Shown here one piece after another: positions 1 to 25,927 of a DNA stretch of 64,000 nucleotides (its first letter is position 1; each line of letters begins with the position of its first letter). This stretch comes from an uncultured Opitutia bacterium (GTDB taxonomy: Bacteria; Verrucomicrobiota; Verrucomicrobiia; Opitutales; UBA953), in assembly GCA_945957395.1 (NCBI GenBank), contig CAMFKE010000002.1, forward strand, positions 186,001 through 250,000, read 5' to 3'. Under the pieces are notes generated by a model, which did not search any database, was not told the origin of the DNA, and saw only the letters and a list, made by a program, of their open reading frames with translations. The translations under genes were made by a program, and so were the position numbers.

Positions 1-1226
1 AGCTTGGGGTCGGGGTGGATGACCTCCTGGAGGTAGTCGACGACGATGAGGTCGGTGCGGCCGGAGCGGGAGTGGGCGAGGCGGGCCTCGGCCTCGATGT
101 GGTCGATGCGGTTGAGGTTGGCGCGGACCTGGAGGCGGCGCTCGTCGGAGTAGGCGCGAAGCTCGCGCAGCCAGGAGCGGTGGGCCTCGACACGCTCGTC
201 GAAGAGGCGGGACTCGACGCGGGCCTGGAAGTCCCAGAGGGATTCCTGACCGATCTTGCGGCCGAAGGCGTCGCCTTCGCGGATGAGGGCGCGCTCGGCG
301 GAGCGCCACTTGGCGAGGAGGGCGGCGTCGTTCTGCTCGCGGAAGGGGATGCCTGACATGAGGCCGGCGCAGCGCCCGGTGAACTGTTCGTCGGAGGTCT
401 CGAGGAGGAAGGCCTGCACAAAGCCGCCGGAGCGCAGGTGGGCGAAGGCGAGCTGGCGAACGAGGGAGGACTTGCCGGCGCCGGGCTTGGCGCCGACGAC
501 CACGAGGCCGTCGCCGGTGGCGGCGCAAAGGGGCTGGAGGCGCTCGTCGAGGGAGCGAAGGCCCCAGGAGACGCGGCGCAGCTTGGATTCGTCGGGGGCG
601 ATGCCGCCGACGGCGTCGTCGAACTTGCGCAACTGGCGCTCGATGACATCGGCGAGGGTCTCGCGGCGCTCGGTGGTGGCGCGCAGGGCGCCGAGCATGC
701 CCTCCATGTGGGGGGAGACGGCGGCGGAGAACTCGCCCCAGGAGGAGCGTGGGGAGAAGACGGACTCGGTGACGCAGGAGGCGCCGGCGAGGAGGCGGCG
801 CAGGAGGTACTGCTCGCGAACGGCGCCGAAGTGGGCGTGGACGAAGGCGGTGCCTGAGACGCCGCGGGTGAGCTCGGCGAGGTAGGCGAGGCCGCCGGCG
901 GCGTCGGCCTCGCCGGAGTCCTTGAGGGCGATGCCGAGGGAGAGCGAGTCGCAGGGGCGGCGGTCGGAGTGGAGGCGCACCATGGTCTCGGCGATGATCT
1001 GGTGCGAGGTGAGGAAGAACCAATCGGGGGCGAGGCCTTCGACAAGGAGGGAGGCGAGGATGCCGCCTTTGCCCTCGTCGAGCTCGAAGTCGTTGATGAT
1101 GGCGGCGAGCACGCCGCGCTCGGCCTCGGGGTGATGGGGCGGAGTGCGCCCGGATACATCCCCTTGGGGAGGGTATGGGTTCTTGTAATTTTTTTTCCTC
1201 GGGGAGGATGAGGCAGTGTCAGTCAT
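1..1226 (-). CDS. DnaB-family replicative helicase of the prophage (C-terminus cut by window edge)
   Basis: Ring helicase expected to unwind phage DNA at the replication fork. The N-terminus carries the DnaB signature PPHHPEAERGVLAAII near residue 30. The RecA-like core shows a Walker A motif (GAKPGAGKSS, about residues 244-253) and a Walker B motif (DLIVVDYLQ, about residues 393-401). The ATG at 1226 gives the natural DnaB N-terminus. The gene runs off the left edge, so the last part of the helicase domain is not visible. It lies just downstream of a replisome-organiser-like gene, a common phage replication pairing. No Shine-Dalgarno sequence precedes the start. Confidence 0.9.
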   Translation of the reverse strand, partial: MTDTASSSPRKKNYKNPYPPQGDVSGRTPPHHPEAERGVLAAIINDFELDEGKGGILASLLVEGLAPDWFFLTSHQIIAETMVRLHSDRRPCDSLSLGIALKDSGEADAAGGLAYLAELTRGVSGTAFVHAHFGAVREQYLLRRLLAGASCVTESVFSPRSSWGEFSAAVSPHMEGMLGALRATTERRETLADVIERQLRKFDDAVGGIAPDESKLRRVSWGLRSLDERLQPLCAATGDGLVVVGAKPGAGKSSLVRQLAFAHLRSGGFVQAFLLETSDEQFTGRCAGLMSGIPFREQNDAALLAKWRSAERALIREGDAFGRKIGQESLWDFQARVESRLFDERVEAHRSWLRELRAYSDERRLQVRANLNRIDHIEAEARLAHSRSGRTDLIVVDYLQEVIHPDPK

Positions 1227-1269: not shown

Positions 1270-2271
1270 TCAGGCGGCGGCGGGCTCGGGGCGAGGGGCC
1301 GGGCGCTCCGGGGGGCGGACGGGGCGGCGAGGGCCGGATTCGGGCTCGGCGAGGATGACGCGCAGCGACTCGGTGTTGTCGGCGGAGGGGGCGGCGGAGG
1401 CGGGGGTGCGGCCGGGGCGCATCGAGGGGTCGGCGGGGAAAGGCAGGTTGCGGCGCATGGCCTCCTCCAGCGCCCAGATGGCGTCGTCGACGGCGTGGGA
1501 TTCGATTTGGCGCTTGTGGCGGTGGACGGTGGTGAAGGGCGGGTTGAAGCCCTTGTGGTGCTTGGCCTTCAGGTGGGCGATCCAGTCGCACCAGGCGTCG
1601 CGGAAGGGGGAGGATTCCAAAAAGGCGGAGGGAAGCCCCTTGGCCTCCTTGCGGCAGTACTCGCGGTGGTGGCGCGCTTCGACTTCCTCTTGCGTCAGCC
1701 GCCCCTCCCCACCCTCGCCTTGCGTGGTGCCGGGTGGAACGGAGTCATGGGGTAAGGGGGAGTCTCCTTCTCCTTCTCCTTCTCCTTCTCCTTCTGCAGC
1801 GGCATCTTTTGCGGAGGTTTTCCGGCAAACATGCGGCATGTCCTGCGGATGTTCTGCGGCATGCTCAGGGGTGGCGGAGCGGGTGGGCTTGGCCTGCTTG
1901 GAGGAGGTGCCGACCGAGGGGAGCTCGGCGACTGTGGACATCCATCCCACTTCCGGAGAGGAAAAGAAGGCGATGGCGTCGGCGAAGTCCTTGGCCTTCC
2001 AGCCGGTCTTGGCCTCGAGGTCGTCGGGCGTGTAGGGGGTCTGGCCTTGGCTGAGGTAGCCGCGACGCCCGTGTGGATTTTCGCAGGAGACCTCGCTCAT
2101 GATGCGCCACATGTTGAGGAATTTGTGGCCGTCCTTGTGCCGGGAGAGGCGCCGGACGATGATTTCGTTGCCCCAGACGGGGCATTTGTACCAGTCGAGG
2201 TGCTTGTAGCGCTTGGCCTCGCCGGAGTTGTTTTCCCGAGCGATGGCGTCGAGGCGGAGATAGGCGGACAT
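1270..2271 (-). CDS. Replisome organiser / replication initiation-like phage protein
   Basis: 333 residues. The N-terminal ~110 residues (MSAYLRLDAIARENN..., with WYKCPVWGNE and LSRHKDGHKF) look like a compact DNA-binding region, and the C-terminal third (AWCDWIAHLKAKHHKGFNPPF) resembles the tail of phage replication proteins that load a helicase. I infer the role from the position directly upstream of the DnaB-type gene; no catalytic motif is visible. A Glu-Gly dipeptide tract at about residues 159-168 is encoded by a hexanucleotide tandem repeat (1762-1796). It could instead be an unrelated DNA-binding protein. Confidence 0.6.
   Translation of the reverse strand: MSAYLRLDAIARENNSGEAKRYKHLDWYKCPVWGNEIIVRRLSRHKDGHKFLNMWRIMSEVSCENPHGRRGYLSQGQTPYTPDDLEAKTGWKAKDFADAIAFFSSPEVGWMSTVAELPSVGTSSKQAKPTRSATPEHAAEHPQDMPHVCRKTSAKDAAAEGEGEGEGEGDSPLPHDSVPPGTTQGEGGEGRLTQEEVEARHHREYCRKEAKGLPSAFLESSPFRDAWCDWIAHLKAKHHKGFNPPFTTVHRHKRQIESHAVDDAIWALEEAMRRNLPFPADPSMRPGRTPASAAPSADNTESLRVILAEPESGPRRPVRPPERPAPRPEPAAA
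1762..1796. repeat. Hexanucleotide tandem repeat inside a phage replication gene
   Basis: About five copies of CTCCTT (GAAGGA on the coding strand) in a row, encoding an EG dipeptide tract. The unit is a multiple of three, so copy-number change would alter linker length without shifting the frame. Confidence 0.9.
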
Positions 2272-2311
2272 GGTGGAATGCGGGGGAGGTGTTTCGGTGA
2301 ATCAGGGGGGC

Positions 2312-3001
2312 TCACTGGGGGCGGGGCTTGGGCACGGGGCCCACGGGCTCCCAGACGCCGGAACTCACGGGGCGCACGAGCACGGGCATGCCTACGCGCC
2401 AACGGTCACGCAGACGCGCCGCCACGCGCACGGCGACCACCTCGGCGGGATCGCCCTCCAGGCGCACCAGCAGCACGGACGGGTTGCGCGGCAGCGACTG
2501 CACCATGCCCGGCCGCTCGGCGCGCTCGAGCAACAGCGCCTCGGCCTCGGACGGCTCCACGCCCACGGCGCGGGCCACGGCGGCCACACCGGCGGCGCTC
2601 AGCGGCGCCTTGGCGTCGGCGGGCGCACCGGTCAGCCCGGCGAGGCGGGCGCACCGCGGGCGCAGCAGGCCCAGCGCATCCGCCAGCTGCGCGACCGTGG
2701 CGGGCGCGGCCCCACCTGACGGCGGCGCGCCGTCTGAATTTTTTTTCTGTTCCGGCAGTTCAAGGGGATGGGTCAAATCCGACCCCCTTTTGGGTGTAAT
2801 CCCGCCGGAGTGGGATGAGTTTTCGCAGCCCCCCCCCGTGTTCGCGGGCGCACCCCCGCCCCCCCCCATGCTCGCGCCCTGCAAGAGGCGCGCGGGCGCG
2901 TTGTCGGCGACGCGCGCAGGCGGCGCAGGAGGTACGGGCGCGGTCTCGCGCGCCATCTCGGCGATCATCCTTTTGCCCTTTTCCCGGTCTTTGTGTGACA
3001 T
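2312..3001 (-). CDS. Unknown prophage protein with two G9 homopolymer tracts
   Basis: 229 residues, unrecognised. The N-terminus is charged (MSHKDREKGKRMIAEMARE). The middle (residues ~40-90) is low-complexity, rich in Gly, Pro and Ala, and contains GGGGGAP. The C-terminal half is better ordered (ALGLLRPRCARLAGLTGAP..., then RLRDRWRVGMPVLVRPV). Two runs of nine G on the coding strand (2859-2867 and 2829-2837) lie 21 bp apart in the low-complexity part. It sits between an HTH-like gene and the replication genes, so a regulatory or replication-accessory role is possible but not shown. Confidence 0.65.
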   Translation of the reverse strand: MSHKDREKGKRMIAEMARETAPVPPAPPARVADNAPARLLQGASMGGGGGAPANTGGGCENSSHSGGITPKRGSDLTHPLELPEQKKNSDGAPPSGGAAPATVAQLADALGLLRPRCARLAGLTGAPADAKAPLSAAGVAAVARAVGVEPSEAEALLLERAERPGMVQSLPRNPSVLLVRLEGDPAEVVAVRVAARLRDRWRVGMPVLVRPVSSGVWEPVGPVPKPRPQ

Positions 3002-3070
3002 GATTGTGTAACAGCGTGTGAATTGATGCGGCTCTTAGGCCATAAAACAGGGGTTTCAAACTCCCTTGCG

Positions 3071-3724
3071 TCAGTTTTCGCCAGCTTCCCCTGGCTCGGC
3101 ATCCGCCTGCTCGGGCTCGCCGACATCGATGACCTCGAAACCCTCGGCGTCCTTCATGACCGGGCCCTTTTGCTGCGCCGCCGCCGCCCTCAAACCCATC
3201 AGCGCGGCGCGCAGTTCGTCGGGCGACCAGTTCGGCGCGGCCACGACCAGCGTCTGGGCGCCGCCGAGCAACTCCTCGGAGCGCTGGGCCACGATGCCGG
3301 CGATGATGGCCTTGTCCTTGGTGGAGATCTTGGCGCGCTTGACCGGGTCGGCGAAGTCGTCGGCGATGCCATCGACCGCCATGACGGCGACCGCGCGCAT
3401 GGAGCGACCGAGTCTTTCTTTTTCGGTGCTTAAACTCTCCTCCGCCATGCGGATGATGCGCACCGAATCCGGAGCCAGTTCGAGCAACTCGGCGACCTTG
3501 ACCGTGCCGAACCCTGCCGCCAGCAGCTGCACGGCAGCCGCATAGGTCTTCGGCCGGCGTTGTTTTATCTGAGCGGCCGTGTATCGGCTCACCTCGGCGC
3601 GCGACTCCGGCTCGATGGCGAGCGAAATCGGGTCGGTCCACCCGTCACCCAGCCTTCCCTCCGTGACCAGGTCGATTTGCCCCTCCTGCTCTTCCTTCGG
3701 CTTCGCCGTGCGGCCTTTGCCCAT
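3071..3724 (-). CDS. Prophage protein with a predicted helix-turn-helix segment
   Basis: 217 residues. The region TYAAAVQLLAAGFGTVKVAE followed by LLELAPDSVRIIRM (about residues 60-95) reads as a helix-turn-helix, as seen in small terminase-like and phage regulatory proteins. The rest is helical, with a conserved-looking APNWSPDELRAALMGLRAA, and the C-terminus is acidic. It starts 18 bp after the upstream HTH gene, so the two are probably co-transcribed. I cannot decide between a DNA-packaging accessory and a regulator. Confidence 0.65.
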   Translation of the reverse strand: MGKGRTAKPKEEQEGQIDLVTEGRLGDGWTDPISLAIEPESRAEVSRYTAAQIKQRRPKTYAAAVQLLAAGFGTVKVAELLELAPDSVRIIRMAEESLSTEKERLGRSMRAVAVMAVDGIADDFADPVKRAKISTKDKAIIAGIVAQRSEELLGGAQTLVVAAPNWSPDELRAALMGLRAAAAQQKGPVMKDAEGFEVIDVGEPEQADAEPGEAGEN

Positions 3725-3742
3725 GGTCGTTTCCGAAAAAAA

Positions 3743-4015
3743 TTAAAGAGCATGCGTCCGCAGCCAGTGAAGGACGGCGGAAGCGGGCACCACGGTGCAG
3801 CGGATGTTGAGCTTGTAGCGAGGGCCGATGCCCTCCTTGCCCTTGGTCTCCTCGTACAGCGCGATCTGGCGCGCGACCTCTCGCTCGGAGATGGTGAGCA
3901 GCTCGGCGATGCGCTCGATGCGGTACATCTGCTCGACGGCAGGGAGCGGCGCCGCCGGTGCATCCTTGATGACAATCAGTTTGGCCTTCGTTTCGGGGGG
4001 TGTTGCGTTCGACAT
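3743..4015 (-). CDS. Small excisionase/MerR-like HTH protein
   Basis: About 90 residues from the ATG at 4015; an in-frame GTG at 4039 is an alternative. The segment MYRIERIAELLTISEREVAR is a winged-helix/excisionase-like DNA-recognition motif, followed by a short basic and hydrophobic tail ending HWLRTHAL. It is the first gene after the strong terminator of the large polyvalent-protein gene. Its leader also carries a weak match to the phage leader element seen at 11997 and 19519. A switch regulator or excisionase is the natural guess, but there is no integrase in view to pair it with. Confidence 0.6.
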   Translation of the reverse strand: MSNATPPETKAKLIVIKDAPAAPLPAVEQMYRIERIAELLTISEREVARQIALYEETKGKEGIGPRYKLNIRCTVVPASAVLHWLRTHAL

Positions 4016-4109
4016 GTTCGGACCGTCCCCGAACCGCACACAGGTGCGTCAAGCGGCTTTTCTTCCATGACTAAAAACGCCCGCAAAGCCCGATAAAACC
4101 TAGCTCCGC

Positions 4110-4143
4110 AAAAAAAGCCCCCTGCCTTTCGAGGCAGAGGGCT
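4110..4143 (-). terminator. Rho-independent terminator after the polyvalent-protein gene
   Basis: On the minus strand AGCCCTCTGCC-TCGAAA-GGCAGGGGGCT forms a strong hairpin followed by seven T. It separates the late (virion and lysis) block from the replication and regulatory block. Confidence 0.9.
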
Positions 4144-4161
4144 CGTCATGCGCGCCGTCCG

Positions 4162-7100
4162 TCACGGCTTGTTGAGCTTGCGCCACTCGTCCGTGCGCAC
4201 CTCCAGCTCCTTCAGCGCGTCCGCCGGCGAAGACCCGATGCGCCTCAGCGTCACGGCCTGATCCTCACACCGCACCAGCGTCTGCTCGTGCCAACGGTTC
4301 AGGCGGTTCAGGCGCGCCTTCAGCTCGGGCTCGAGCTGCCCCTTGACGCCCTGAAGCATCGTGCGCTCGGCCATGAGGGCGCGCGCATTGTCCGGGCGCC
4401 TGGCGCGCACATAGTTCGTCGCCTCGTCCGCGCGGTCCTTCTCGCGCTCCATGGACTCGAACTCTCCGGCGTTGGAGATGGTCACGAACCCCTTCACGAT
4501 CGGCAAGCGAGCCACTCCCGAGAGGTCGCCCTCCACTTCCTGTCGCCCGGTGAGCACCTTCGTTGGCACGCCGAACTGATCCAGACTCCACAGCGTCATG
4601 CGCGCGAGCCCAGGCGTTCCGCCGGCCTTCATCTCCGCCTCATTCAGAATGGCGCGCCCGTTCTCGTCCCGCGGAGCATTGCCGGTCGCGTAGCTCGCCC
4701 ACGCGCCGACCTGCTTGATGAGCGCATTGGGCCCGGGAATCATGCCGCCCGCGGTATTCGCCGCAGCATTGCCCGCCTCGCTCCAGGTGCGCTGGCCGGT
4801 CGCCGCGAGCGCCAGGAATCGGCCCGCGCCAAAGAACAGCCGCTGCGTATCATCCATGGCGAACGGCACGGCCACCGTCTGCTCGCTCGCGCCGTAGCCG
4901 ACCGAGCCCACAGGCAGCTGCATGCGGCTCTGCTTCTGGTACTCCGGCAGCCGCCGATACAGGCGCTTCACCTCTTCGCCGAACAATCCGGCCTCCGCCA
5001 GCGCCACCATCACCCCGGCGGCGAACACCAGGCCGAGTCCGAACCACGCGGCGCCCACCGACGCCCCGCTCGCCGCTCTCGCCGCCACGCGCGCCGCCAG
5101 CATGGAGCCCGCCGCCACCTTGCCTACAGGCTCCATGCCGGGCAATCCGGCATACGGAGAGTCGCCGGTCATCAGTGCGAAGTCCTGATGCCACCCGCGC
5201 ACCGCCACGCGCACATATTGCATGGCGGCGCCGGCCACCTTCAGGTGCGCACCGGCCGCCAGCGTATTCGGCACCCCTATCATGTCGCGCACGAACCCGG
5301 CCGCCTTGTCCTTCGGCCAGCCCAGCTCGCGCGTCAGGTACATCCAAGCCTTCAGCTTCGCCACCGACTCGTTCGTCTCGTTCACGAAGCCGATGTGGTC
5401 CATGAGCCGGCCCATGAACACATAGCCGCCCAACTTGCGGTACAGGTCATGCTTCTCATGCGGCTTGCCAGTCACCGCATGCCGCTGCAGCAGCGCGTTC
5501 ACCGCCTCGCCGTCATCTCCCGGGTGGAATATGCGCCCGCCCGCCGCATACAGCTCATGCGGAGGCGAGATAGCCCGCGCCGCCAGCATATCGGCCAGCA
5601 CCGGGTCATACTCGCCCGCCAGGTACTTGCGCGCCAGCCCGCCCGCCTCGTCGAGCGGCATGCCGAACCAGCCGCTCATGAAGTTGCGCACGATGCTCCA
5701 CATCACCGCGCCCTTACCCTTCCAAGTCGGCATATTCGTGAAGGCGCGGCCCATGTCGCGCTCCGCACCGCGCACCGTGAAGGTCGGCGAGTACTGAATG
5801 AAGTTGGGGTGGAAGAAGTTCTGGAACAGGTAGTTGAGCGACTGCGTCACCACGCTCACCGAGGCGCCCGGCGCGCGCTCGAACACCTCGGCCAGCTCGC
5901 GCGGGATGTGGTACGCCTCGGGCTTGCCGCCCCACCTCACCACGAACAGCGCCTCGTCCTGCCGGTTCGCCGGCTCGGGGAACGGCGAGAAGTTCGTCTT
6001 GCGCTTCACCGGCTTCCACTCGTCCGGATTCACCTTCGAGAGCGTCAGCATAGCCTCCACCTTCGCCTTGTTCAGCTGCGCCGCGCGCACGGTGGTCACC
6101 GCCTTGAGCACCATCGCCAGCGCCGGATTGGCCACCTCCTTGAAGGTGCCTCCCTGCGCGCGCATCGTGCTCGCCACCGAGCCCGTGAAGTAATCCACCA
6201 CCACGAACGGCGCATAGAAACCGCGCGCACCGGCTCGCATCTTCTCCACCGCCCCGGCCTCGAAGATTCCGCACGCCACGGCCTGATCCACCACGCCCTC
6301 CCAGATGCGGCGCATCTCACGCTGCGCACGGATGAGCGCCACGCGCGCCTCACGGTTCGGCTGACGCCTGAGCAGTTCGCTCACCTGCAGGCGCGCATCC
6401 TTCACCTGCACGCCGCCGGGGTTGAACAGCTTGTCGTCGAAACTCGTCTTCGTCACCGCCTCCCTGGTCACTTCGCCCGACTCGTCGAGCTCGGCGGCCT
6501 CCAACTCCTCCACCACCTCGCGCGCCCGGTCGCCCTTCAGCACGCGCATGTGCTGCATATACAGGCCGAGGTCGTGCCAGTTCACCCCGGCGGCGTCCAG
6601 CGGCGCGAGCACCGACCGGTGGAAGTCGCTCAGGAAACCGTGCACCTCGTTGTCCGCCAGCGTCAACTCGCCGAACAGCAGCCGGAAATCCTTCGCCCCG
6701 GACGGCACGAGACCCTCCGCCTTGCCGTCCAGGTATCGGCGTATCGCCGGGCTCGCCGCCTCCAGCAACTCCGACTGCAGACGCCCCAGCACATTCTCCG
6801 GAGCGCCGCCCAGCAGCCTCTCGCGCCTCAGGTGCTGCGCCATGAAGACGGCGTCCGCCCGTCCGTAGCCCTTCAGCGCGTCCATATCCGTCGCCAGCGC
6901 CTGCGCGGCCTTGTCGCCACCTTGCAGCAGCGCCTGCATCTCCAGCAGCGCGCGCGCCGCATCCGGCTTGCGGTCGAGGTGGTCGAAGAACATGCGCCAC
7001 CCCAGCGGAGCATGCTCCAGCGCCGTCGCCGGGCTGGCCAGCACGGCCGCGAAAAAGTCCGCATACAGTTCGTCGGCGCTCCCGCGGTACGCGTCATAGC

Positions 7101-10100
7101 CGGCGTCCGCCCCCTTCTGCCACGGGCGCATCTTGCCGCTCAGCTCCAACAGCTCCTCGCGAATCTCGCCGTGTAGCGCCAGATCGCCCTGCACACGCTT
7201 CGCCACCAGCGCCTGGTAACGCTCGTTGCGCGCCACCAGCCACTCCGCGTGGTCCGCCGTGCCCTTCTCCGGCTCGGGCATGCCGCTGTCGCGCAGCTCC
7301 GCCGCCGCCGCCACCTTCAGCTTGTCGCGCACCGGCTTCACCAGCGTGGGCATGGTGCCCGGGAACACCGGCAGCGCCGTGCGCCTGAAGTCCGCCAGCA
7401 CCGCCAGCCTGCCCAGCAGGTTGCCGGAGCCCACGGCGCCCTCGCGCACAGCCTTCCCGTACTTGTCCTTGCCCACGATCTTGCCGAACTGCGCGTAGTC
7501 CACGCCGTGCCCTATCTCGTGCGCCATCACGAACAGCGCCGTCTCCGGCTTGAACGCCGTCGTGCGGTTGATCGCGATACGGCCCGTGCCGGGCGAGTAA
7601 AACCCGCGCTTCTTTTCCGACATCTTCCGCACATCCGGCACCATCCCCGTGAGCTCCTTCCAGAACCTCACCAGATTCGGCAGCCGCGCCGCCTTCCACT
7701 CCGGCAGGCTCACCGCGTCCACCGGCTTGAATCCGTACTCGCTGCGCCAGTATAGCCCCGACTCCGACGGCGGGATGGGCAAGTCGCCTGAGGACGGCTT
7801 GACTCCGAGGATTTCCCCGATCACCTTGTTGATGACTCCTAGGTCTTTGGTGTCGGCGTGTACTTCGCCAGCGGCGGAGAGCCCGGTTTTGAAAGCCAAA
7901 CGACCTAGGAGTCCTTCGTTCAGCACCTCGTGCACATACAGCCGGCGATCCTTCACCGAGGTCTTCAGGAGCGCGACTCCGGCAAAGGTGTCGGAACCGA
8001 TTCGCACGGGAGCCGCCACGATGTAGACATGCGCACCGGGAATTCCGCTCCTGTCAGGCCAGTCGGCCACCACTTTGCCCTTGGCGATGATATCAGGCAC
8101 CAGCGCGAACGCCTGCACCTTGGCCTTGCCAAGACCATGCCCGGCGGAGTCATGCACGGCGCGCCCATCCAGCAGCACGCGCCCAAGGTCTGGACTCTCC
8201 ACGCCTCCTCCGAAGTGTTGCGCGTAGTACTCTATCACCCATGCCTTCAACGCCTTGGTGCTTCCAAAGTGCGGCACCTCGTCGCCACGGATGGACGCCA
8301 CCGGCGCCGAAGTGAGGAACCTCCTGGCATCATCCCTGGGCACCGAGGACACACGCGGCGCAGGGTCGGCCTGCCTGCGGTCGCTCAGCACGCCCGCCGC
8401 CGCCGTCGGGTAGCCCCCGTCGCCACCGCCGAGCACATCGCGCAGGCGCTCCATAAACTCCTCGCGGTCGATGTCGAAGCCCGCGTTGCGCGCCATCGCC
8501 AGCGCTTCCTCCACGGTCTTGCCTCGCCCGTCCTTGGTCTTCGCCAGGCGGTTGTACAGCGCCAGCGCGCCGGGTTCGGTCTTCACCCCGGCGTCGCCCA
8601 TGATCGCCTCCACCTCCGACACCAGCGCGTCGCCCTTCGCCCCGCCGACCGACTCCGCTCGCGCACTCGGCGCGCGCAACGCGCCGTCCTCCATCAGGTC
8701 GCGGAAGGTCGGGCCGGCATCGCCTTCGGCCATGCGCCGGTCGTACTCGCGGCCCAGTTCGCCGTGCAGCTCGGGGAAATCCTCGGCCCCCGCCATCTGT
8801 TTGGGCGTCAGCTTACCCCAGGCGATGCGGCCCACGCCGTCCTTGGGCAGCGTGCCCACGAACACATCCAGCCCCTCCGTGGCCGCCTCGTGCGCCACCG
8901 CGTCCACCTCCGCACGGTCGGCGTCCACCGACGCGGCGGCCTCCTCCGCCCGGCTCATCGCCTCCACCTCGGCGTCCACCTCGGCATCCACCGCCTGCTC
9001 GTGGCGCTCCTGCGGCGTCGCATCGCGCACCCCGGCGAACGGGTCGTCCTGCGCAGGCACGGCGGGCACCTCCCTGTTTCCGGTCACATTCACCACCGGC
9101 GCCGCGGGAGCTTCAGGCGACGGCCTCACCGCCGGCGCTAGCGGCTCGCCGGGGCGCAGCGTGAACGGCGCGTCCGGGTTCAGATCCGGCGCGCGCGTCG
9201 GCGCCTCGGGCGCAGAGGAGACATGACCGCGCTCCGATGCGGACGACGAAACATCAACGCCAGGAGCCGCGTCCACATCAACTGTCTGCGATGCCGCAGA
9301 ATCGGCCACCTTTCGCGCGGCCGCAAACTCGGCCTCCTCTTTTGCCTTGGCCGCCGCAGCCGCCTCGGCCTGCGGCTTCTTCGCCAGCGCCTCGAGCTCG
9401 TCGAAATTCGTCACACCGGCGAAGCGCGGGTCCACCGCCGCACGCTCCCTCGCCAGGCGCACCGCCTCCGCTTCCGCGTCATGCCGAGCCTGCACCCCGG
9501 CCGCCACCTCCTGCGGCGTCACTCCGGCCTTCGCCGCCGCCCGCGCATACAGCGCACGCGTCACCGCCGTCTCCAGCAGCCCTGCTCCGGCGCCGAACAG
9601 GCCGCCGAACAGCGACTCCGCCGCCACCTCGCGCGCATCCACATGCCCGGCGTCCACCGCCTGGCGCACCACGCTGCCGGCACCCGACATCACCGCGCCT
9701 TCGCCGGCGCGTATGGCCATGGTCGTGCCATAGCTCGTGCCCTGCAGCGGCGACAGCTTCGCCCCGGGGATCATCGCCAGCGGCGCGCTCACCACGAGCC
9801 CGCCCACGCTCGCGTCCTGCCTCACGCCACGATGCACCTCGTCGAGCTGCGCCGCGCCCTCGCCCGCCACGCCTGCCGCGCCCAGGGCGCCCAGCATGGG
9901 CAAACCCACTGGCGCGCCCACGCCCGTCGCCGTGGCCGCCGTGGCCACGGCGGCCAGCCCCATGGGCGCCATGCGCAGCGCTCCCGCCTTCACATTGCCG
10001 GGGCTTTGGAAGAACCCGGCGTTGCGCTCGAACACCGGCTTGGGCACCGCCCACGCCCGCACCGCCTCCGGATCGCCCTCCGTCTTCGGCGCCTCAAACT

Positions 10101-10410
10101 CGCGCGCGAAGTCGGCCGCGCCGCCGAAGTCCGTGTCATCAGGCAGCGCGCGCCGCGTCCAGCCGTTGTCCACCAGCGTCTGGCGAGCCTCGGTCACATT
10201 CATGCGCCCCTCCAGCATCAGCCGGTGCAGCGTCGCCGGCACCTCCTTCACCTTCGCCTTGAAGTGCACCGGGTCCACGGGGTCCCAGCCGCCGCCGAAC
10301 TCCACATCGGCACGCTCAGCGTCCTTCACGCCCGCGAACGGGTCAGCGTCCTTCACTCCGGCGAACGGGTCGAGGTCCTTCACGCCTTCAAACGGATCAA
10401 CGCCGCTCAT
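4162..10410 (-). CDS. Giant phage polyvalent / DNA-injection-type virion protein with zinc-protease motif
   Basis: 2082 residues, likely carried in the virion and delivered into the host. The N-terminus has three near-tandem repeats of the type DPFAGVKDA (residues ~5-32), with a further copy near residue 465. Residues ~130-310 are Ala/Gly-rich and hydrophobic; ~330-560 are acidic and low-complexity. Residues ~707-830 resemble MuF-type polyvalent nuclease/LPD domains (for example VHDSAGHGLGKAKVQAFALV, YIVAAPVRIG, RRLYVHEVL). A zincin motif HEIGH at residues 964-968 is followed by ADELYADFF (~1112-1120), which fits the third zinc ligand. The C-terminal half (QNFFHPNFIQYSPTFTVRG, GFVNETNESVAKLKAW) resembles large polyvalent-protein domains, with one hydrophobic segment near 1782-1808. 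It overlaps the upstream gene by 4 nt. Domain names are by resemblance only. Confidence 0.75.
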   Translation of the reverse strand: MSGVDPFEGVKDLDPFAGVKDADPFAGVKDAERADVEFGGGWDPVDPVHFKAKVKEVPATLHRLMLEGRMNVTEARQTLVDNGWTRRALPDDTDFGGAADFAREFEAPKTEGDPEAVRAWAVPKPVFERNAGFFQSPGNVKAGALRMAPMGLAAVATAATATGVGAPVGLPMLGALGAAGVAGEGAAQLDEVHRGVRQDASVGGLVVSAPLAMIPGAKLSPLQGTSYGTTMAIRAGEGAVMSGAGSVVRQAVDAGHVDAREVAAESLFGGLFGAGAGLLETAVTRALYARAAAKAGVTPQEVAAGVQARHDAEAEAVRLARERAAVDPRFAGVTNFDELEALAKKPQAEAAAAAKAKEEAEFAAARKVADSAASQTVDVDAAPGVDVSSSASERGHVSSAPEAPTRAPDLNPDAPFTLRPGEPLAPAVRPSPEAPAAPVVNVTGNREVPAVPAQDDPFAGVRDATPQERHEQAVDAEVDAEVEAMSRAEEAAASVDADRAEVDAVAHEAATEGLDVFVGTLPKDGVGRIAWGKLTPKQMAGAEDFPELHGELGREYDRRMAEGDAGPTFRDLMEDGALRAPSARAESVGGAKGDALVSEVEAIMGDAGVKTEPGALALYNRLAKTKDGRGKTVEEALAMARNAGFDIDREEFMERLRDVLGGGDGGYPTAAAGVLSDRRQADPAPRVSSVPRDDARRFLTSAPVASIRGDEVPHFGSTKALKAWVIEYYAQHFGGGVESPDLGRVLLDGRAVHDSAGHGLGKAKVQAFALVPDIIAKGKVVADWPDRSGIPGAHVYIVAAPVRIGSDTFAGVALLKTSVKDRRLYVHEVLNEGLLGRLAFKTGLSAAGEVHADTKDLGVINKVIGEILGVKPSSGDLPIPPSESGLYWRSEYGFKPVDAVSLPEWKAARLPNLVRFWKELTGMVPDVRKMSEKKRGFYSPGTGRIAINRTTAFKPETALFVMAHEIGHGVDYAQFGKIVGKDKYGKAVREGAVGSGNLLGRLAVLADFRRTALPVFPGTMPTLVKPVRDKLKVAAAAELRDSGMPEPEKGTADHAEWLVARNERYQALVAKRVQGDLALHGEIREELLELSGKMRPWQKGADAGYDAYRGSADELYADFFAAVLASPATALEHAPLGWRMFFDHLDRKPDAARALLEMQALLQGGDKAAQALATDMDALKGYGRADAVFMAQHLRRERLLGGAPENVLGRLQSELLEAASPAIRRYLDGKAEGLVPSGAKDFRLLFGELTLADNEVHGFLSDFHRSVLAPLDAAGVNWHDLGLYMQHMRVLKGDRAREVVEELEAAELDESGEVTREAVTKTSFDDKLFNPGGVQVKDARLQVSELLRRQPNREARVALIRAQREMRRIWEGVVDQAVACGIFEAGAVEKMRAGARGFYAPFVVVDYFTGSVASTMRAQGGTFKEVANPALAMVLKAVTTVRAAQLNKAKVEAMLTLSKVNPDEWKPVKRKTNFSPFPEPANRQDEALFVVRWGGKPEAYHIPRELAEVFERAPGASVSVVTQSLNYLFQNFFHPNFIQYSPTFTVRGAERDMGRAFTNMPTWKGKGAVMWSIVRNFMSGWFGMPLDEAGGLARKYLAGEYDPVLADMLAARAISPPHELYAAGGRIFHPGDDGEAVNALLQRHAVTGKPHEKHDLYRKLGGYVFMGRLMDHIGFVNETNESVAKLKAWMYLTRELGWPKDKAAGFVRDMIGVPNTLAAGAHLKVAGAAMQYVRVAVRGWHQDFALMTGDSPYAGLPGMEPVGKVAAGSMLAARVAARAASGASVGAAWFGLGLVFAAGVMVALAEAGLFGEEVKRLYRRLPEYQKQSRMQLPVGSVGYGASEQTVAVPFAMDDTQRLFFGAGRFLALAATGQRTWSEAGNAAANTAGGMIPGPNALIKQVGAWASYATGNAPRDENGRAILNEAEMKAGGTPGLARMTLWSLDQFGVPTKVLTGRQEVEGDLSGVARLPIVKGFVTISNAGEFESMEREKDRADEATNYVRARRPDNARALMAERTMLQGVKGQLEPELKARLNRLNRWHEQTLVRCEDQAVTLRRIGSSPADALKELEVRTDEWRKLNKP

Positions 10411-11978
10411 TTCGCGCCCCCTTCCGTCACCGTGAGTCCCGCCTTGCGCAGCTGCTCCAGCTGCGCCTTCGCCTGCGCCGCGTCGATCACGCCGTCCTCA
10501 TACATCTGCTTCAGCGCCGCCACCGTGAACATCCCGCCTTTCGCCGGCACAGGATACTGCGCTCCCGTCTTCTCATCCGTCTTCAGCGCATACAGCTTGC
10601 CCTTGCCCACCTCCACAGCCGAAGGAGGGATGGCCGCCGGCGCGGGCGCACCACCCAGCAGCTTGGCCGTGCCGTCAAACATGCCGGCTCCGGACGCTTC
10701 CGGCGCAGCGGTCTTCACCTCCGGCGCGGGCGCTTGCTCGCCGGTCGCTCCCGCTGCCACAGGCGCTCCCTGACGCCGCCTCGGCTCGTCCGGATGTCGC
10801 CCGAACAGGTTCTTGAACGCCTTCGCCGCACCATCCGCCGCGGCACGGAAGTCCGCATTCCCGGGCTCACGGTCCGCGCGCGTCCTGTACAGCGAATACT
10901 CGTTGAGCGCATCGTACTCCGCCTTGCTCGGCTCGTCCCCGGGCAGCCTCTGCTGCGTCAACTCCTTCCCGTATCGCGCATAGCGCTGGCCGGTCATCGG
11001 GTCGGTGATGAACTCCGGCTTCACCTCCGGCTCCGCCGTCGGGCGCAGGTTGCCGTTGGCGTCCTCGATCCAGTCGCGCCCACCCAGGCTCACCACCCGC
11101 GCCGTCTTGTCCGGCTTGGGCGCCCAGCGCCCCTCCTGGTTCACCTCCTGCACACCCTTCAGCACATCCAGCCTCTTGCCCTGGTTGCCCAGCACGGTCG
11201 CGTCGCGCCCCAGCTCCTGCTCCTCGCGCAGCCTCCTCATGGCCTCCTCGTCGCTCAGCCCCGCCGCGCGACCGCTCGCCAGCGCCGTGGCGCGCGCGTT
11301 CGCCTCGTGCCTGTACAGGTCCAGCTGCGTGTCGTAGCGCTTGCCCACATCCTCCTGCATCAGCTTGAAAACACGGTCCTGCCGCGCCCTCGCCTCCGCC
11401 TGGTCCGCGCCCATGCCGTTGAGCACGAAGCTGCGCACATCGTCATAGCCGCCGGTCGCCCCGGCACTCCACGCCTCGCGCCCCAGCACCTCCGCGCCGG
11501 GCCCTCGAATCCCCAGCGACTTCATGACCTCCGCCGCCTGCGTGCTGCTCATGCCCATGCGCCGCACGCCCAGCGTGCCCGGGCCGCTGCCCGTGTTCTC
11601 GATGCTCGTGTAGTTCGGCCTGTCCTCATTGCGGAACCAGCCCTTGCGCATCCCCGGCGAACGCTCGGGCAGACCCACCCCACCCGCCAGGCTCACCGCC
11701 TCCGCATCGCTCATGCGCCTCGGCGTCGCCGGCACAGCTCCTCCAGCCGTCGCCGACGCATCCGGCGCAGGCATCGCACCCGCCGTCGTCGCGCCCCACC
11801 CGCGCATCAGCGCCCGCGCCGTGCCACCCACCGTGTGGATCGCATTCGGCGCCAGCCGGCGCACATCCCCGGACGGCCCCACGCTGTCCATGCCCGCGGG
11901 CACGCCGCCAGGCGTCATGGCCGCCTCCCCGGGGCGCGGGAAGCGGGAGGGTTTCGTGTCGTCGTAAGGTATCGGCAT
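10407..11978 (-). CDS. Unknown prophage protein, probable virion component
   Basis: 523 residues from the ATG at 11978 (MPIPYDDTKPSRF); GTG at 12002 would add eight. The first 130 residues are Gly/Pro/Ala-rich; residues ~140-330 are helical and charged (AEARARQDRVFKLMQEDVGKR and similar), and the C-terminus ends in a short helical hairpin with GGMFTVAALKQMYEDGVID. Its stop overlaps the start of the 2082-residue gene by 4 nt (ATGA), implying translational coupling. A role alongside the giant protein, as scaffold or ejection partner, is inferred from this coupling only. Confidence 0.65.
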   Translation of the reverse strand: MPIPYDDTKPSRFPRPGEAAMTPGGVPAGMDSVGPSGDVRRLAPNAIHTVGGTARALMRGWGATTAGAMPAPDASATAGGAVPATPRRMSDAEAVSLAGGVGLPERSPGMRKGWFRNEDRPNYTSIENTGSGPGTLGVRRMGMSSTQAAEVMKSLGIRGPGAEVLGREAWSAGATGGYDDVRSFVLNGMGADQAEARARQDRVFKLMQEDVGKRYDTQLDLYRHEANARATALASGRAAGLSDEEAMRRLREEQELGRDATVLGNQGKRLDVLKGVQEVNQEGRWAPKPDKTARVVSLGGRDWIEDANGNLRPTAEPEVKPEFITDPMTGQRYARYGKELTQQRLPGDEPSKAEYDALNEYSLYRTRADREPGNADFRAAADGAAKAFKNLFGRHPDEPRRRQGAPVAAGATGEQAPAPEVKTAAPEASGAGMFDGTAKLLGGAPAPAAIPPSAVEVGKGKLYALKTDEKTGAQYPVPAKGGMFTVAALKQMYEDGVIDAAQAKAQLEQLRKAGLTVTEGGAK

Positions 11979-11996
11979 GCCGTAGGCATGACCCAC

Positions 11997-12039
11997 CCGC
12001 ACACACCCCGGTCAACCTCCCTCACCCAAAAGCAGCGCC
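11997..12039 (-). promoter_or_regulatory. Prophage leader element, copy B
   Basis: 43 nt immediately upstream of the 523-residue gene. Read on the minus strand it contains CGCTGCTTTTGGG, then GGTTGACCGGGGTGTGTGCG. It matches the copy at 19519-19561 with about three substitutions. Placement just before phage genes suggests a phage promoter or binding site; it has no clear -10 box, so the function is inferred. Confidence 0.6.
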
Positions 12040-13044: not shown

Positions 13045-13754
13045 ATCGCGCCCCAGTAATAGGATGCACCACCTCCGCACGCCACTCTCTCCACCGCCAG
13101 CGAATGCGTGACGCCCTGCGCGATGGAGTCCAGCGCGCCATTGACCATCGTGTGCGTGGCGAGGAGTTGGTAGCCGTGCGTCAGGTCATCGTCAGGCACG
13201 CCGGCACCCACCTTCACGGCGGCGCTCTGCAAGGTGTAAGGCTCAGACGCACCGCCCCATACTGTCTCCAGGTACGACACGCCTCCGGCCGTAACATCAA
13301 GAACCGGCGGCGTGCCCGGGTATGTCCCTACAAATCCATCCATCGGTGTACCGTCCACGGTAGGGACGACATTACCGACGATGCCAAAGATGTATCTCAG
13401 GTGCGTTGCGTCGGCCCTGATCACCTTGAACGGGTGGTCGCCCAATCCTCCCGCGCCTCCCGCCACGGCGAGGCGGAAGCTGCGCTGCAATTGCTCGGCC
13501 GGGTTGCGCGCCTCCAGCTTCAGGCACCGGTATTGCAGCTCGCGGATCTTGGCGAGCAACTCGCCCTCCGGCGTGGCCGCCTTCTCCGCCGCCTCGTGCT
13601 GTTGGCGGGCCAGCTTGCGCGCCTCGGCGCGCTCGCGCATGCCGCGCGCCGCCTCCGTGCCAAGCCCGGCGGACACGCCGTGCGAGGCGTTCACACCATG
13701 GTCGGGGTTCACGCCGTGGTTCGGGTTGGCACCCAGAGAAGGGTCGGTGGTCAT
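13041..13754 (-). CDS. Unknown prophage protein with N-terminal NHGVN-type repeats
   Basis: 237 residues from the ATG at 13754, which overlaps the preceding stop as ATGA. The N-terminus has four short repeats around NPNHGVNPDHGVNASHGV, then a charged helix (RERAEARKLARQQHEAAEK) that could be a coiled coil. The C-terminal part is a beta-rich domain (FRLAVAGGAGGLGDHPFKV, YIFGIVGNVVPTVDG). This layout suits a virion appendage protein, but I do not recognise the family. Confidence 0.65.
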   Translation of the reverse strand: MTTDPSLGANPNHGVNPDHGVNASHGVSAGLGTEAARGMRERAEARKLARQQHEAAEKAATPEGELLAKIRELQYRCLKLEARNPAEQLQRSFRLAVAGGAGGLGDHPFKVIRADATHLRYIFGIVGNVVPTVDGTPMDGFVGTYPGTPPVLDVTAGGVSYLETVWGGASEPYTLQSAAVKVGAGVPDDDLTHGYQLLATHTMVNGALDSIAQGVTHSLAVERVACGGGASYYWGAI

Positions 13755-15115: not shown

Positions 15116-15179
15116 GGGGTGGGGAAGGCTAAAGGTGGGAGGTGCGAGGTGCGCGGCCTCAGAAAACCGAATCACGGAA

Positions 15180-15452
15180 TCACCTGTTATTTCGCGCCTG
15201 TTCGAGGGCGGCGAGGGCATCCATGCGCGCCTCGCGCTCCGCCATGTACGCGCGGTGGCTGTGCCACAGCTCGTCAACCTGCGGGCGGTACTCGCCCTCC
15301 GGCGTCGCCACCGGCACCCCGGCTTTCAACACCAGCGAGTCCGGCGCGTAGATCGTGGGCGAGAGCGCATCGGGCCGTCCACTCGGCGAGCAGGCGGTCA
15401 GCGTCAGCGCGAGCAGCGGCGTCAGCACTGTCGCTAAGTCGGCGTATCTCAT
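15180..15452 (-). CDS. Rz1-like outer-membrane spanin lipoprotein (candidate)
   Basis: 90 residues. A signal sequence ends in the lipobox LTLTAC (lipidated Cys at residue 21), followed by a short Pro-containing mature part ending DALAALEQARNNR. The gene starts inside the preceding gene in another frame and extends past its end, the arrangement typical of o-spanin (Rz1) genes relative to i-spanins (Rz). Spanins fuse inner and outer membranes in the last step of lysis of Gram-negative hosts. Assigned from architecture and lipobox, not sequence similarity. Confidence 0.6.
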   Translation of the reverse strand: MRYADLATVLTPLLALTLTACSPSGRPDALSPTIYAPDSLVLKAGVPVATPEGEYRPQVDELWHSHRAYMAEREARMDALAALEQARNNR

Positions 15453-16531: not shown

Positions 16532-19159
16532 TTAGGCGTGGCGGAACCACTTGTTTTGGGTGGAGCGGTAGACATAGGCGGCGGTCTGCGAGGCGGCGGC
16601 GGCGGTGAGCGCCGCGCCTGTGGCGAAGGTGGCGGACGCCGGGCCGACCGGGTTCATGGAGAGGGCGGTCACGCCGAAATCGCCGAAGCAGATCCTGAAC
16701 ACCTGGCCGTCCGCAGGCGTGGTGGGCATGGTGATGGTCAGCGTAGCCAGCAGGGCGGCCGGGTTGATGATGGTCGTCTCGTCGTTGGAGCCGATGGCCA
16801 CCGTGCCGCCGGTGGCTGGCGTCGCGTAAACCACCCCGACGACGCGACCGCGCAGGGTCTGGAGCATGCCGTTTGCCGCGACCTTGATCGAGTCGGTAAG
16901 CGTCGTGCCCACGCCCACGGCGAACACCATCTCCATGCGCTGCGAGGCGTTGTTCCACGCGAAGGCAGTCGTATTGTTCGCGCGGATACGGCCACCGACG
17001 AACGGGGTGGCGTCGCCGGCGAAGGTGATGTCGGCGTATTTTCCGGCCGTCGTGGCGCTGGAGGTGTTCGCGATTTCCAGCCCGCGAACGCCGCCGGACT
17101 GGGCGTTGGAGACGCGCACCGTGGGCGTAGCGCCGCCGGTCTGGCCGCCGTTGATTTGAGCCGTGACGGCGGTCTGCGAGCCGCTGCCCAGGGCGATGGT
17201 GCCGGTGGTGAGCGTACCGCCGATGGTGATGGTGGACGTGGCGGCCGAGGTCAGCGTGAGCCCGCCGCCGGAAACGGCGGAGAGCAGACCCGTGCCGGTG
17301 TTGGTGAGGGTCAACGCGCCGTTGGCGCCGGCGGCGCGCGAGAAGGTCGTGGTCGGGGTCGTGCCGCCGGCCCCGAAGAGGTCGAGACTGAGGTTGGCCG
17401 ACGACGACCCCCACTTGTTCACCTCGACCCCGGACGCCCCGAAGCGCACCGGCGCGGCGTAGGTGACAGCGGTGGTGCCCACGACGATGTCGGCAGTCGT
17501 CGTGCAGCGGTAAACAAGGCCTGCCGCGCTCGCCTGATTGGTGCCTTTGCCCAGCACGGACACGAACGCACCCTTGAGGGCGCGCCCGGTGGCGGCCAGC
17601 GGATGGCGTGTCCACGCTCCCGCAGCGGCGATGTAGACGCCGTTCTCGGCCTGGGCGGTCTGCGCCACGCAGAGGATGACATCGCCGGCGGATGTCGTCA
17701 GACCGTCGAAAGTCTGCGCTCCCGACAGGGTGAGGTTCGTCCGCGCCACATGGTCGGCCACGATGCAGGTGCCAGGCCATGCGCTCACATTGCCGGCGCC
17801 GTCGAGTGTGACGGACCCGTTGAGCGTGCCGGGAGCGCCTGCCAGAGGACCGAGCGTCGGCTTGTTCGTCAGGTCGGCGTAGCTGCCGCTCGTCGCCACC
17901 GCGGCGAGCGTCGGCTTGTTCAGTATCTTCGCCTGGCCGCTCACGGCGGACCAGTCGGCGTTCACGCCAAGCTCGACATCGTAGATGCTTCCGCCGCGTC
18001 CGAACTTGAGGTGAGGCACCGTGCCGAAGAGATAGAGCGAAGACTCCCAATCGCCGACGGCGGCCGGGAGCGGCAGAATGGAGATGAGCGGCGACTCTAT
18101 GCCGCTAAGGACTTTGAGGGAACCGGCGGAGCGCACGGTGGTCTCCGTAGCGCTGTCGATGAGCATGTAACCATCGCCCATGACCTCCGTATACCGAAAC
18201 GCAGGGGTGGCGTAGGGGTCCCCACCTCCGATGGACACGCTATTGGTGCGCACATCGATGCCGCAGCCGGCATGCATGTACTCGGAGGCGTTGATGTAGA
18301 CGCGGCTCGACGGGTTGGCGCGCACGCGCACCTCGTTCGAGTCGTTCGAGTACAGGCCGATTGCGTCCCAGCCTGAGCCAGGAATCCACCCAAGTCCGGC
18401 GGGCGCGCCCCCTCCGCCTTCGAGGACAAGCTGGCCAGATTGGAGCACTACAGCGCGCCCGAGGGTAAGGAGTGCGCTGTCCGAAATCAGGTCAATGCCG
18501 CCATATTGCAGGTTGCCGAGGGTGAGCGCCGCAGCCTGGGTGTCGGCGGAGAAATCCATGCCGAGCACTTCCATGTCGCTCGCCCGGCGTATGAGGCCGT
18601 ATTGCGAGCTGAACGGGTCGGCCCACTGGTCCACCCTGAACTGCAGAGCGCGAGGCGTTACGGCAATGGAATCGGAAGCGCCGTCGGAGGCCTCGGCCTC
18701 CGTGGCCAGTCGCACCTTCCCCTTGGTCGCGGTGGTGGCGTCAGGCACGGTCGCTCCTCCGGCGAGCAGAGCGGCCTTCAGCGCGGCGGGAGTCACCGCG
18801 CGCTCGGCGTCCGTCCCGGCGATGGCTTCGGAGTCAGTGGCCAGCTCGACCACCCCGCGCTGCGAGGTCGAGGCGTTGATGTCGATCCCGGCCACGATGT
18901 CGGCGGCCTGGTCGGCCGAGCTCTGCGCACCCTGACGCGCCACATCCGCCAAGGCGGCCGAGTTTTGCGCCGCAGCTTTCGCCACACCGGCAGAGTCGGC
19001 ATGGCCGGCGGCATTCCCGGCCTCCACTGACGCCTCATCAGCCTTCTGCGCAGCCGTCACGGCCGACCCGGTAGCGGCGCTCGCGGCGGCAGCCGCCGCC
19101 TGCGCCAGCGGATTCAGGTCTCCCGCATACGACGGCGGGCCGGGCAGTATCGCAGACAT
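16532..19159 (-). CDS. Phage tail fibre protein
   Basis: 875 residues. The N-terminal ~100 residues are Ala-rich and coiled-coil-like. Two tail-fibre repeats follow at about residues 100-170: STSQRGVVELATDSEA...VTPAALKAAL and ATKGKVRLATEAEAS...VTPRALQ. The rest is a long Gly/Thr/Ser-rich beta structure with repeated short strands (LTLTNTGTGLLSAVSGGG, TSTITIGGTLTTGTIALG), consistent with a trimeric fibre shaft. It ends in a small domain finishing STQNKWFRHA. The receptor-binding tip should be the C-terminal part. The host receptor cannot be read from the sequence. Confidence 0.88.
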   Translation of the reverse strand: MSAILPGPPSYAGDLNPLAQAAAAAASAATGSAVTAAQKADEASVEAGNAAGHADSAGVAKAAAQNSAALADVARQGAQSSADQAADIVAGIDINASTSQRGVVELATDSEAIAGTDAERAVTPAALKAALLAGGATVPDATTATKGKVRLATEAEASDGASDSIAVTPRALQFRVDQWADPFSSQYGLIRRASDMEVLGMDFSADTQAAALTLGNLQYGGIDLISDSALLTLGRAVVLQSGQLVLEGGGGAPAGLGWIPGSGWDAIGLYSNDSNEVRVRANPSSRVYINASEYMHAGCGIDVRTNSVSIGGGDPYATPAFRYTEVMGDGYMLIDSATETTVRSAGSLKVLSGIESPLISILPLPAAVGDWESSLYLFGTVPHLKFGRGGSIYDVELGVNADWSAVSGQAKILNKPTLAAVATSGSYADLTNKPTLGPLAGAPGTLNGSVTLDGAGNVSAWPGTCIVADHVARTNLTLSGAQTFDGLTTSAGDVILCVAQTAQAENGVYIAAAGAWTRHPLAATGRALKGAFVSVLGKGTNQASAAGLVYRCTTTADIVVGTTAVTYAAPVRFGASGVEVNKWGSSSANLSLDLFGAGGTTPTTTFSRAAGANGALTLTNTGTGLLSAVSGGGLTLTSAATSTITIGGTLTTGTIALGSGSQTAVTAQINGGQTGGATPTVRVSNAQSGGVRGLEIANTSSATTAGKYADITFAGDATPFVGGRIRANNTTAFAWNNASQRMEMVFAVGVGTTLTDSIKVAANGMLQTLRGRVVGVVYATPATGGTVAIGSNDETTIINPAALLATLTITMPTTPADGQVFRICFGDFGVTALSMNPVGPASATFATGAALTAAAASQTAAYVYRSTQNKWFRHA

Positions 19160-25884: not shown

Positions 25885-25927
25885 AAAACCGGAAAAAAGA
25901 CGCCCCGACATGCCCCTCGCAAACCGC

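What the first reader, a model, noticed from the sequence alone, without database searches (positions are those of the whole stretch)
4162..10410. A 2082-residue virion polyprotein combining DPFAGV repeats, a MuF-like domain and a HEIGH zinc-protease
The protein shows short tandem N-terminal repeats (DPFAGVKDA and variants, with one copy reused near residue 465), a middle domain with a polyvalent-nuclease feel (residues ~707-830), a HEIGH zincin motif with a plausible downstream third ligand (964-968 and ~1114), and a hydrophobic segment near the C-terminus. I know of polyvalent virion proteins delivered with phage DNA (a precise family is not assignable by eye), but this domain combination may carry new effector functions against host defence.
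Basis: partly seen in the sequence, partly recalled or inferred. Interest (0 to 1): 0.75.

Follow-up and report, generated by a model that had tools for sequence, protein, structure and literature searches.

The report
Giant phage polyvalent protein with metalloprotease
This prophage gene encodes a giant, probably virion-packaged protein that carries a conserved zinc-protease domain and one predicted effector domain; the class is known, but its start bears several copies of a short motif that differs from phage to phage, which looks like an undescribed docking or packaging tag.

Summary
The 2082-aa ORF is real (minus strand, 10410 to 4162) in a ~37-kb prophage with integrase, capsid, DnaB helicase and tail-fibre genes. 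Residues 693-877 are an LPD3 domain of polyvalent proteins, not MuF-C by sequence. Residues ~905-1190 are a zincin: HEIGH (964-968), D971 and third ligand E1114 are kept in relatives, and the AlphaFold model's best PDB matches are zincins (IrrE Z 7.7, anthrax lethal factor Z 7.4). The C-terminal ~840 aa define a wide family of giant proteins: 80 viral contigs, two other genomes, and Pelagibacter phage Baldr at the position of T7 gp16. Variable middle regions carry RadC, GGDEF, zeta toxin or ART-like domains. So it is a new member of the polyvalent/ejection-protein class (Iyer 2017). The LPD3 model's two best matches are BECR RNase toxins (weak, Z 4.7 and 4.3). New observation: the DPFAGV repeats are one case of a family habit. 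26 of 66 full-length members have a private duplicated N-terminal motif (controls 14/396 and 12/200); in 11 of 58 the N-terminal stretch recurs before the MPTase (1 expected). It is not shared with neighbouring genes and not general in PLxRFG isolates. I read it as a packaging/docking motif; function untested.

The parts
4162..10410 (-). giant polyvalent protein CDS, 2082 aa
   Evidence: open frame, strongest coding score of the window; homologous to giant phage proteins over MPTase + C-terminus
10321..10401 (-). three tandem copies of the private motif, residues 4-30 (VDPFEGVKD LDPFAGVKD ADPFAGVKD)
9022..9048 (-). isolated internal copy of the same motif, residues 455-463 (DDPFAGVRD)
   Evidence: score 37 against a null maximum of 29 in other family members
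9553..10035 (-). Gly/Ala-rich N-terminal domain, residues 126-286
   Evidence: matches L023 residues 118-273, E 1.7e-5; similar Gly/Ala-rich sequence seen by eye in H66 gp60 and others
7780..8334 (-). LPD3 domain, residues 693-877; invariant in relatives: H758, G759, K764, F768, Y825, H827
   Evidence: Pfam PF18798, homologues, alignment A7, model pLDDT 78
6841..7710 (-). zincin-like metallopeptidase (MPTase) domain, residues 901-1190
   Evidence: alignments and model pLDDT 86; PDB matches to IrrE and lethal factor zincins
7507..7521 (-). HEIGH motif, residues 964-968
7069..7071 (-). E1114, third zinc ligand (ELYAD motif)
   Evidence: 83 of 83 relatives
4165..6693 (-). conserved C-terminal ~840-aa region, residues 1240-2082, that defines the giant-protein family
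4969..5067 (-). hydrophobic TM-like segment, residues 1782-1814
   Evidence: hydropathy
10407..12002 (-). preceding ORF (531 aa), ATGA overlap with the giant gene; possible gp15-like ejection partner (inference from position only)
   Evidence: no family match
16532..19159 (-). tail fibre gene of the same prophage
   Evidence: PHROG tail-fibre matches, best E 1.5e-16
1..1226 (-). DnaB-like helicase of the same prophage (continues beyond the window start)
   Evidence: phrog_19, E 7.6e-47

Best explanation
A late, virion-packaged polyvalent protein of a temperate, probably podovirus-like phage. Shown: an N-terminal private repeat motif, an LPD3 domain, a zincin metallopeptidase with complete ligand set (H964, H968, E1114, base E965) and a C-terminal ~840-aa region shared with a large family of giant phage proteins. 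Inferred: it is packaged in the head, leaves with the DNA, and its conserved C-terminal part takes the place of T7 gp16 in the DNA-delivery conduit, while the middle is a swappable effector bay (here LPD3; in relatives RadC, ParB, GGDEF, zeta toxin, ART-like or lysozyme-like domains). The zincin most likely cuts the polypeptide itself, before or after delivery, to free the effector. LPD3 most likely is an RNase-like effector. The repeated N-terminal motif most likely docks the protein to a virion partner during head assembly or ejection. My confidence by step: zincin fold 0.95; packaged and ejected 0.75; self-processing 0.45; LPD3 an RNase 0.4; motif as docking/packaging tag 0.45.
For: H964, E965, G967, H968, D971, E1114 and A1117 are identical in 83 of 83 aligned relatives. 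The scan pattern forced part of this, but 9 of 10 contigs recovered by a pattern outside the MPTase also keep HExGH, as do L022 and L023 (found by protein search) and Baldr. MPTase model pLDDT 86; best PDB hits IrrE 3dti Z 7.7/97 residues and lethal factor 1yqy Z 7.4/135 residues, then PPEP-3 and others, all zincins at the top. Homologue H66 gp60 shares LPD3 and is noted in its record as verified by mass spectrometry as part of the virion. Baldr gp20 lies after tail tubular A/B and before the tail fibre. Prophage context: integrase, major head protein, DnaB helicase, tail fibre. Effector bays of relatives. LPD3 model: top two of 998 aligned PDB chains, 6cp9 and 7m5f, are both BECR-fold CDI toxins (PMC9086364, PMC8616854). 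Motif statistics.
Against: No direct evidence that this prophage is functional or that this protein is in a virion. BECR match Z 4.7 is weak; Foldseek alone gave no significant match, and profile comparison with MuF_C is negative. One relative (L110) has HELGQ, so the protease can be lost. The motif is not shared with other ORFs of the same contigs, so if it docks, the partner recognises it without carrying it. No NCBIfam match.
Confidence: 0.72

Rival explanations
1. The zincin does not process its own chain; it is an effector that cuts host proteins after injection.
For: Closest solved relatives by fold are proteases of other proteins, IrrE/PprI and lethal factor; Iyer et al. list this option.
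Against: The MPTase is linked to the conserved C-terminus in every family member although the effector bay changes, as expected for a structural or maturation role.
Confidence: 0.3
2. The repeated N-terminal motif is the cleavage site of the protein's own MPTase rather than a docking motif.
For: Copies lie before and after the N-terminal domain and would release it; repeats and protease are in the same protein.
Against: Tandem copies at the extreme N-terminus would release only short peptides; no copies near the MPTase or C-terminus (2 of 58, 1 expected); motifs differ strongly among proteins whose catalytic residues are identical; H66 and L122-L126 carry duplicated motifs with a different (PLxRFG-type or unassigned) C-terminus.
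Confidence: 0.15
3. The N-terminal repeats are neutral by-products of local duplication in a disordered tail.
For: The tail is compositionally simple; some family members have no repeat (40 of 66 below z 3).
Against: Enriched only at the N-terminus (26/66 against 14/396 internal windows and 12/200 other ORFs); copies hundreds of residues away are preserved; of codon differences between copies 100 are synonymous and 72 not (detection by protein similarity biases this count).
Confidence: 0.25
4. It is a remnant in a decaying prophage without function.
For: Private divergent sequence, no close relative in 38 related genomes except LPD3 fragments.
Against: Intact 2082-codon frame, strong codon bias, complete catalytic set, intact neighbours.
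Confidence: 0.1

Closest known systems
Phage-type polyvalent proteins with zincin MPTase (Iyer et al. 2017, PMC5512222)
   Same: Giant phage-encoded multidomain protein, LPD3 domain, HEXXH...E MPTase, phage late-gene context
   Different: Only one recognised effector domain; MPTase lacks the conserved histidine that the paper describes at the end of strand 2 of one common phage clade; private N-terminal repeats, not mentioned in the parts of the paper I read
H66/F116-like giant virion protein gp60 (PLxRFG, NCBIfam NF032893 tail-700)
   Same: LPD3 (35% identity), Gly/Ala-rich N-terminal domain, duplicated N-terminal motif (KPWEEF), last long structural gene
   Different: C-terminal module is tail-700, to which ours has no detectable match; H66 carries a methyltransferase and LPD23 that ours lacks
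T7 gp16 / ejection (pilot) proteins
   Same: Family member Baldr gp20 sits at the syntenic position, with a lysozyme-like stretch (by eye) in its N-terminal half; TM-like segment
   Different: No sequence match; no recognised transglycosylase in ours; much longer; carries an MPTase
N4 virion RNA polymerase
   Same: Giant virion protein with a C-terminal-side zincin MPTase (PMC5512222)
   Different: No RNA polymerase domain found in ours
BECR-fold CDI toxins CdiA-CT Kp342 and BWH57
   Same: Weak structural resemblance of the LPD3 model (Z 4.7 and 4.3)
   Different: No sequence similarity; LPD3 conserved residues (H758, K764, Y825, H827) do not map simply on the Lys-Tyr-Thr/His/Arg set reported for Kp342
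T4 capsid targeting sequence (own knowledge)
   Same: Short N-terminal peptide proposed to direct internal proteins into the head
   Different: In T4 shared by several proteins; here private to one protein and repeated

Membership tests
Polyvalent protein (Iyer et al. 2017) | two or more domains of disparate activity in one chain | tested here: met
   LPD3 + MPTase + conserved C-terminal region
Polyvalent protein (Iyer et al. 2017) | encoded beside phage structural/late genes | tested here: met
   integrase, major head protein, tail fibre, DnaB helicase in the same prophage
Polyvalent protein (Iyer et al. 2017) | transferred into the host with the DNA | not testable with these tools
   only homologue H66 gp60 is noted as a virion protein by mass spectrometry
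Zincin metallopeptidase | HEXXH plus downstream acidic third ligand, conserved | tested here: met
   H964 E965 H968 E1114 in 83/83, 9 of 10 in the set not selected on the motif
Zincin metallopeptidase | N-terminal helix, three strands, HEXXH helix, second helix with the ligand | tested here: met
   model H10-21, E26-28, E36-39, E44-48, H55-72, H212-225; top PDB matches are zincins
Phage MPTase clade with His at end of strand 2 and Asp 3 after HEXXH | Asp three residues after HEXXH | tested here: met
   D971 invariant
Phage MPTase clade with His at end of strand 2 and Asp 3 after HEXXH | conserved His at the end of strand 2 | tested here: not met
   no His in residues 925-950 of the ORF
LPD3 (PF18798) | score over the Pfam gathering cut-off | tested here: met
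   27.2 bits vs 27; close to the limit, but homologues L022 (66.7 bits) and H66 (47.6) pass clearly
MuF / MuF_C (PF18819) | sequence match to the domain | tested here: not met
   no hit; no hit in own genome; hhalign probability 0.65%
BECR-fold nuclease | fold match | tested here: inconclusive
   top VIA matches 6cp9 Z 4.7 and 7m5f Z 4.3, both BECR; Z is low
BECR-fold nuclease | RNase activity | not testable with these tools
   needs protein
PLxRFG / tail-700 (NF032893) | NCBIfam model match | tested here: not met
   0 NCBIfam families up to E 1
T7 gp16-like ejection protein | syntenic position between tail/internal genes and tail fibre | tested here: inconclusive
   true in Baldr; in this prophage the tail fibre gene precedes it

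The most novel reading that the evidence does not exclude
Giant phage ejection proteins of this family carry a private short linear motif, repeated 2-5 times at the N-terminus and often again behind the N-terminal domain, that is exchanged as a set of copies between close relatives and docks the protein to a co-evolving virion partner during packaging or ejection: an uncharacterised cargo-loading code of tailed phages.
Probability: 0.35. Interest if true: 0.72.

Novelty: new member of a known kind. Interest (0 to 1): 0.5.

Why it matters
How phages load giant proteins into a head and thread them out with the DNA is an open question. If the private N-terminal repeats are the loading or docking signal, they offer a small, testable, possibly portable tag. 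The LPD3 result gives a first, weak structural lead (an RNase-like fold) for a domain left uncharacterised in 2017. The family of MPTase + C-terminal region links many environmental giant ORFs to one delivery scaffold with exchangeable effectors.

Tried and rejected
(1) Motif as a tag shared by several virion proteins: own-contig ORFs beat all nulls in 5 of 63 cases, 2.4 expected: not supported. (2) Generalisation to PLxRFG giant proteins of isolates: only H66 and its relative USP_25 exceeded z 3 among 15 PLxRFG isolates plus Baldr: not general. (3) MuF identity: negative. (4) PHROG 4529 'minor head protein and DNA pilot' hit covers only the HEXXH area, so not used for naming. (5) Joint alignment of LPD3-only and MPTase-only rows misaligned; modelled apart. 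(6) Full-length single-sequence scans of viral and genome collections found nothing; only the family alignment reached relatives. (7) PDB sequence search empty; plasmids empty. (8) Foldseek alone gave no significant match for either model; the zincin and BECR matches come from VIA-align of Foldseek's candidates. (10) A first phylum-wide genome search failed technically.
Full report
Observation. The ORF at 4162-10410 is real, 2082 codons, on the minus strand; the finding gave no strand, and the plus strand of the same interval has stops. It has the strongest coding score of the window and starts with an ATGA overlap on the stop of a 531-aa ORF.

Setting. Window plus upstream DNA of the same contig shows a prophage of about 37 kb: integrase (phrog_1, E 4.5e-25), major head protein (phrog_1328, E 1.1e-12), DnaB helicase (phrog_19, E 7.6e-47) and tail fibre (phrog_910, E 1.5e-16), on one strand apart from the integrase. 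The 711-aa and 639-aa ORFs look like portal and large terminase by eye only; PHROGs did not confirm either.

Domains. Pfam gives LPD3 at 718-825 just over its cut-off, and a weak Peptidase_M78 (IrrE-like) match at 927-969. LPD3 is supported by homologues: 38% identity to a related genome, 34.6% to giant proteins of H66-like Pseudomonas podoviruses, and E 3e-18 for Pfam LPD3 in the full homologue L022. H66 gp60, which shares LPD3, is noted in its record as verified in the virion by mass spectrometry.

Family. A search with residues 680-1240 found two further giant ORFs, L022 (2411 aa) and L023 (2088 aa), related over MPTase and C-terminus. Their alignment with ours (A2) found 80 viral contigs, E down to 3e-100, nearly all with ORFs of 1500-4500 aa. 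In 83 aligned members H964, E965, G967, H968, D971, E1114 and A1117 are invariant. Part of this is built in, because the scan patterns covered these sites. A scan from the C-terminal region alone gave 10 contigs, nine of which keep HExGH; the tenth, L110, has HELGQ but keeps the Glu ligand. L022 (HEVGH), L023 (HETGH) and Pelagibacter phage Baldr (HELGH), found without the motif, also keep it. Baldr gp20 lies behind tail tubular A/B and three further ORFs and before the tail fibre, the position of gp16 in T7 (established knowledge; PMC8954989). The region before the MPTase varies: RadC, ParB_N, LPD3, GGDEF, zeta toxin, PARP-like.

Structures. The MPTase model (A6, 50 rows, pLDDT 86) has the zincin order helix, three strands, HEXXH helix, later helix with E1114. 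VIA-align puts zincins at ranks 1-8: IrrE 3dti Z 7.7, 97 residues, 28% identity; lethal factor 1yqy Z 7.4, 135 residues; PprI; and others. The values are just under 8, but the top rows are all of one superfamily and agree with the conserved ligands, so I take the fold as shown. Iyer et al. also matched the N4 MPTase to lethal factor. The LPD3 model (A7, 13 rows, pLDDT 78) gives no significant Foldseek match; VIA-align ranks 6cp9 (Z 4.7, 90 residues) and 7m5f (Z 4.3, 91) first and second of 998 chains. Both are BECR RNase-fold CDI toxins (PMC9086364; PMC8616854). This is suggestive only. A profile comparison with MuF_C sequences of the phylum was not significant, so I do not call it MuF-like.

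Repeats. In 26 of 66 members with a true N-terminus the first 120 residues contain an ungapped self-match with z over 3 against shuffles: for example DPYAGIG (L036), NPFSIF x5 (L089), TDPxLxARLEG (L061), RKHGGR (L069), LPxGFxLD (L071). Some of the 66 are near-duplicates. Controls: 14 of 396 internal windows of the same proteins and 12 of 200 N-termini of other long ORFs of the same contigs. In 11 of 58 non-redundant proteins the N-terminal stretch recurs better in the protein's own linker/effector region than in any other member (1 expected); in the MPTase and C-terminus 2 of 58 (1 expected). Ours recurs at 455-463. Among codon differences between copies 100 are synonymous and 72 not (protein-level detection biases this). 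The motif is not found in other ORFs of the contig beyond chance. In an independent set of PLxRFG isolates only H66 and USP_25 have it strongly, so the habit is not universal. L122 and L123 carry giant proteins 97% identical over the last 1510 residues but with different duplicated motifs (SEIDDILKGAP/SEIDDIMKDAP against ISYEDAF twice); the DNA between them is unalignable from 1273 to 4188 of L122, which includes upstream genes and the N-terminal ~190 residues. One recombination can explain this, and it would carry motif and upstream genes together.

Mechanism. Shown: domain content, catalytic set, fold of the MPTase, family, repeats. Inferred: virion location (from H66 gp60 and class), ejection with DNA, role as conduit part, self-processing by the MPTase, RNase-like action of LPD3, docking by the repeats. 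Iyer et al. propose self-processing of polyvalent proteins by MPTases; this applies here unchanged and untested.

Known or new. The protein is a new member of the polyvalent class. New, as far as eight searches of the held open-access library show, is the family-wide private N-terminal repeat. The library misses most subscription papers, so novelty is not proven.

Noticed in passing
window 22628-24280 + and 25910-27247 +: Two neighbouring plus-strand ORFs share the stretch LANRMKRPAAALA near their starts; the second continues like a sulfatase (NIVVILSDD). Looks like a duplicated sulfatase gene start.
   Followed up: no
L110, ORF 1913-9368, around residue 1470: Family member with HELGQ instead of HEXXH while the Glu ligand motif YRESSKELYAD is kept: possibly an inactivated protease.
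   Followed up: partly
L122, L123, L133, L124: Near-identical giant phage proteins whose duplicated N-terminal motif differs (SEIDDILKGAP type against ISYEDAF type), apparently exchanged together with upstream genes.
   Followed up: partly
L119:7042-14031 (Pelagibacter phage Baldr gp20) and L094-L107: A branch of the family has N-terminal AGF(N/S)DxxI repeats and, by eye, a lysozyme/transglycosylase-like stretch (ESxNRNI...G.FQF).
   Followed up: no
L061 residues 755-849, L071 residues 477-642, L041 residues 722-798: GGDEF and zeta-toxin matches inside giant phage proteins upstream of the MPTase.
   Followed up: no
window 10407-12002, 13751-15277 and L002 7880-12299: Long prophage ORFs without a significant PHROG match (531, 508, 711 and 639 aa); the last two look like portal and large terminase by eye.
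   Followed up: no
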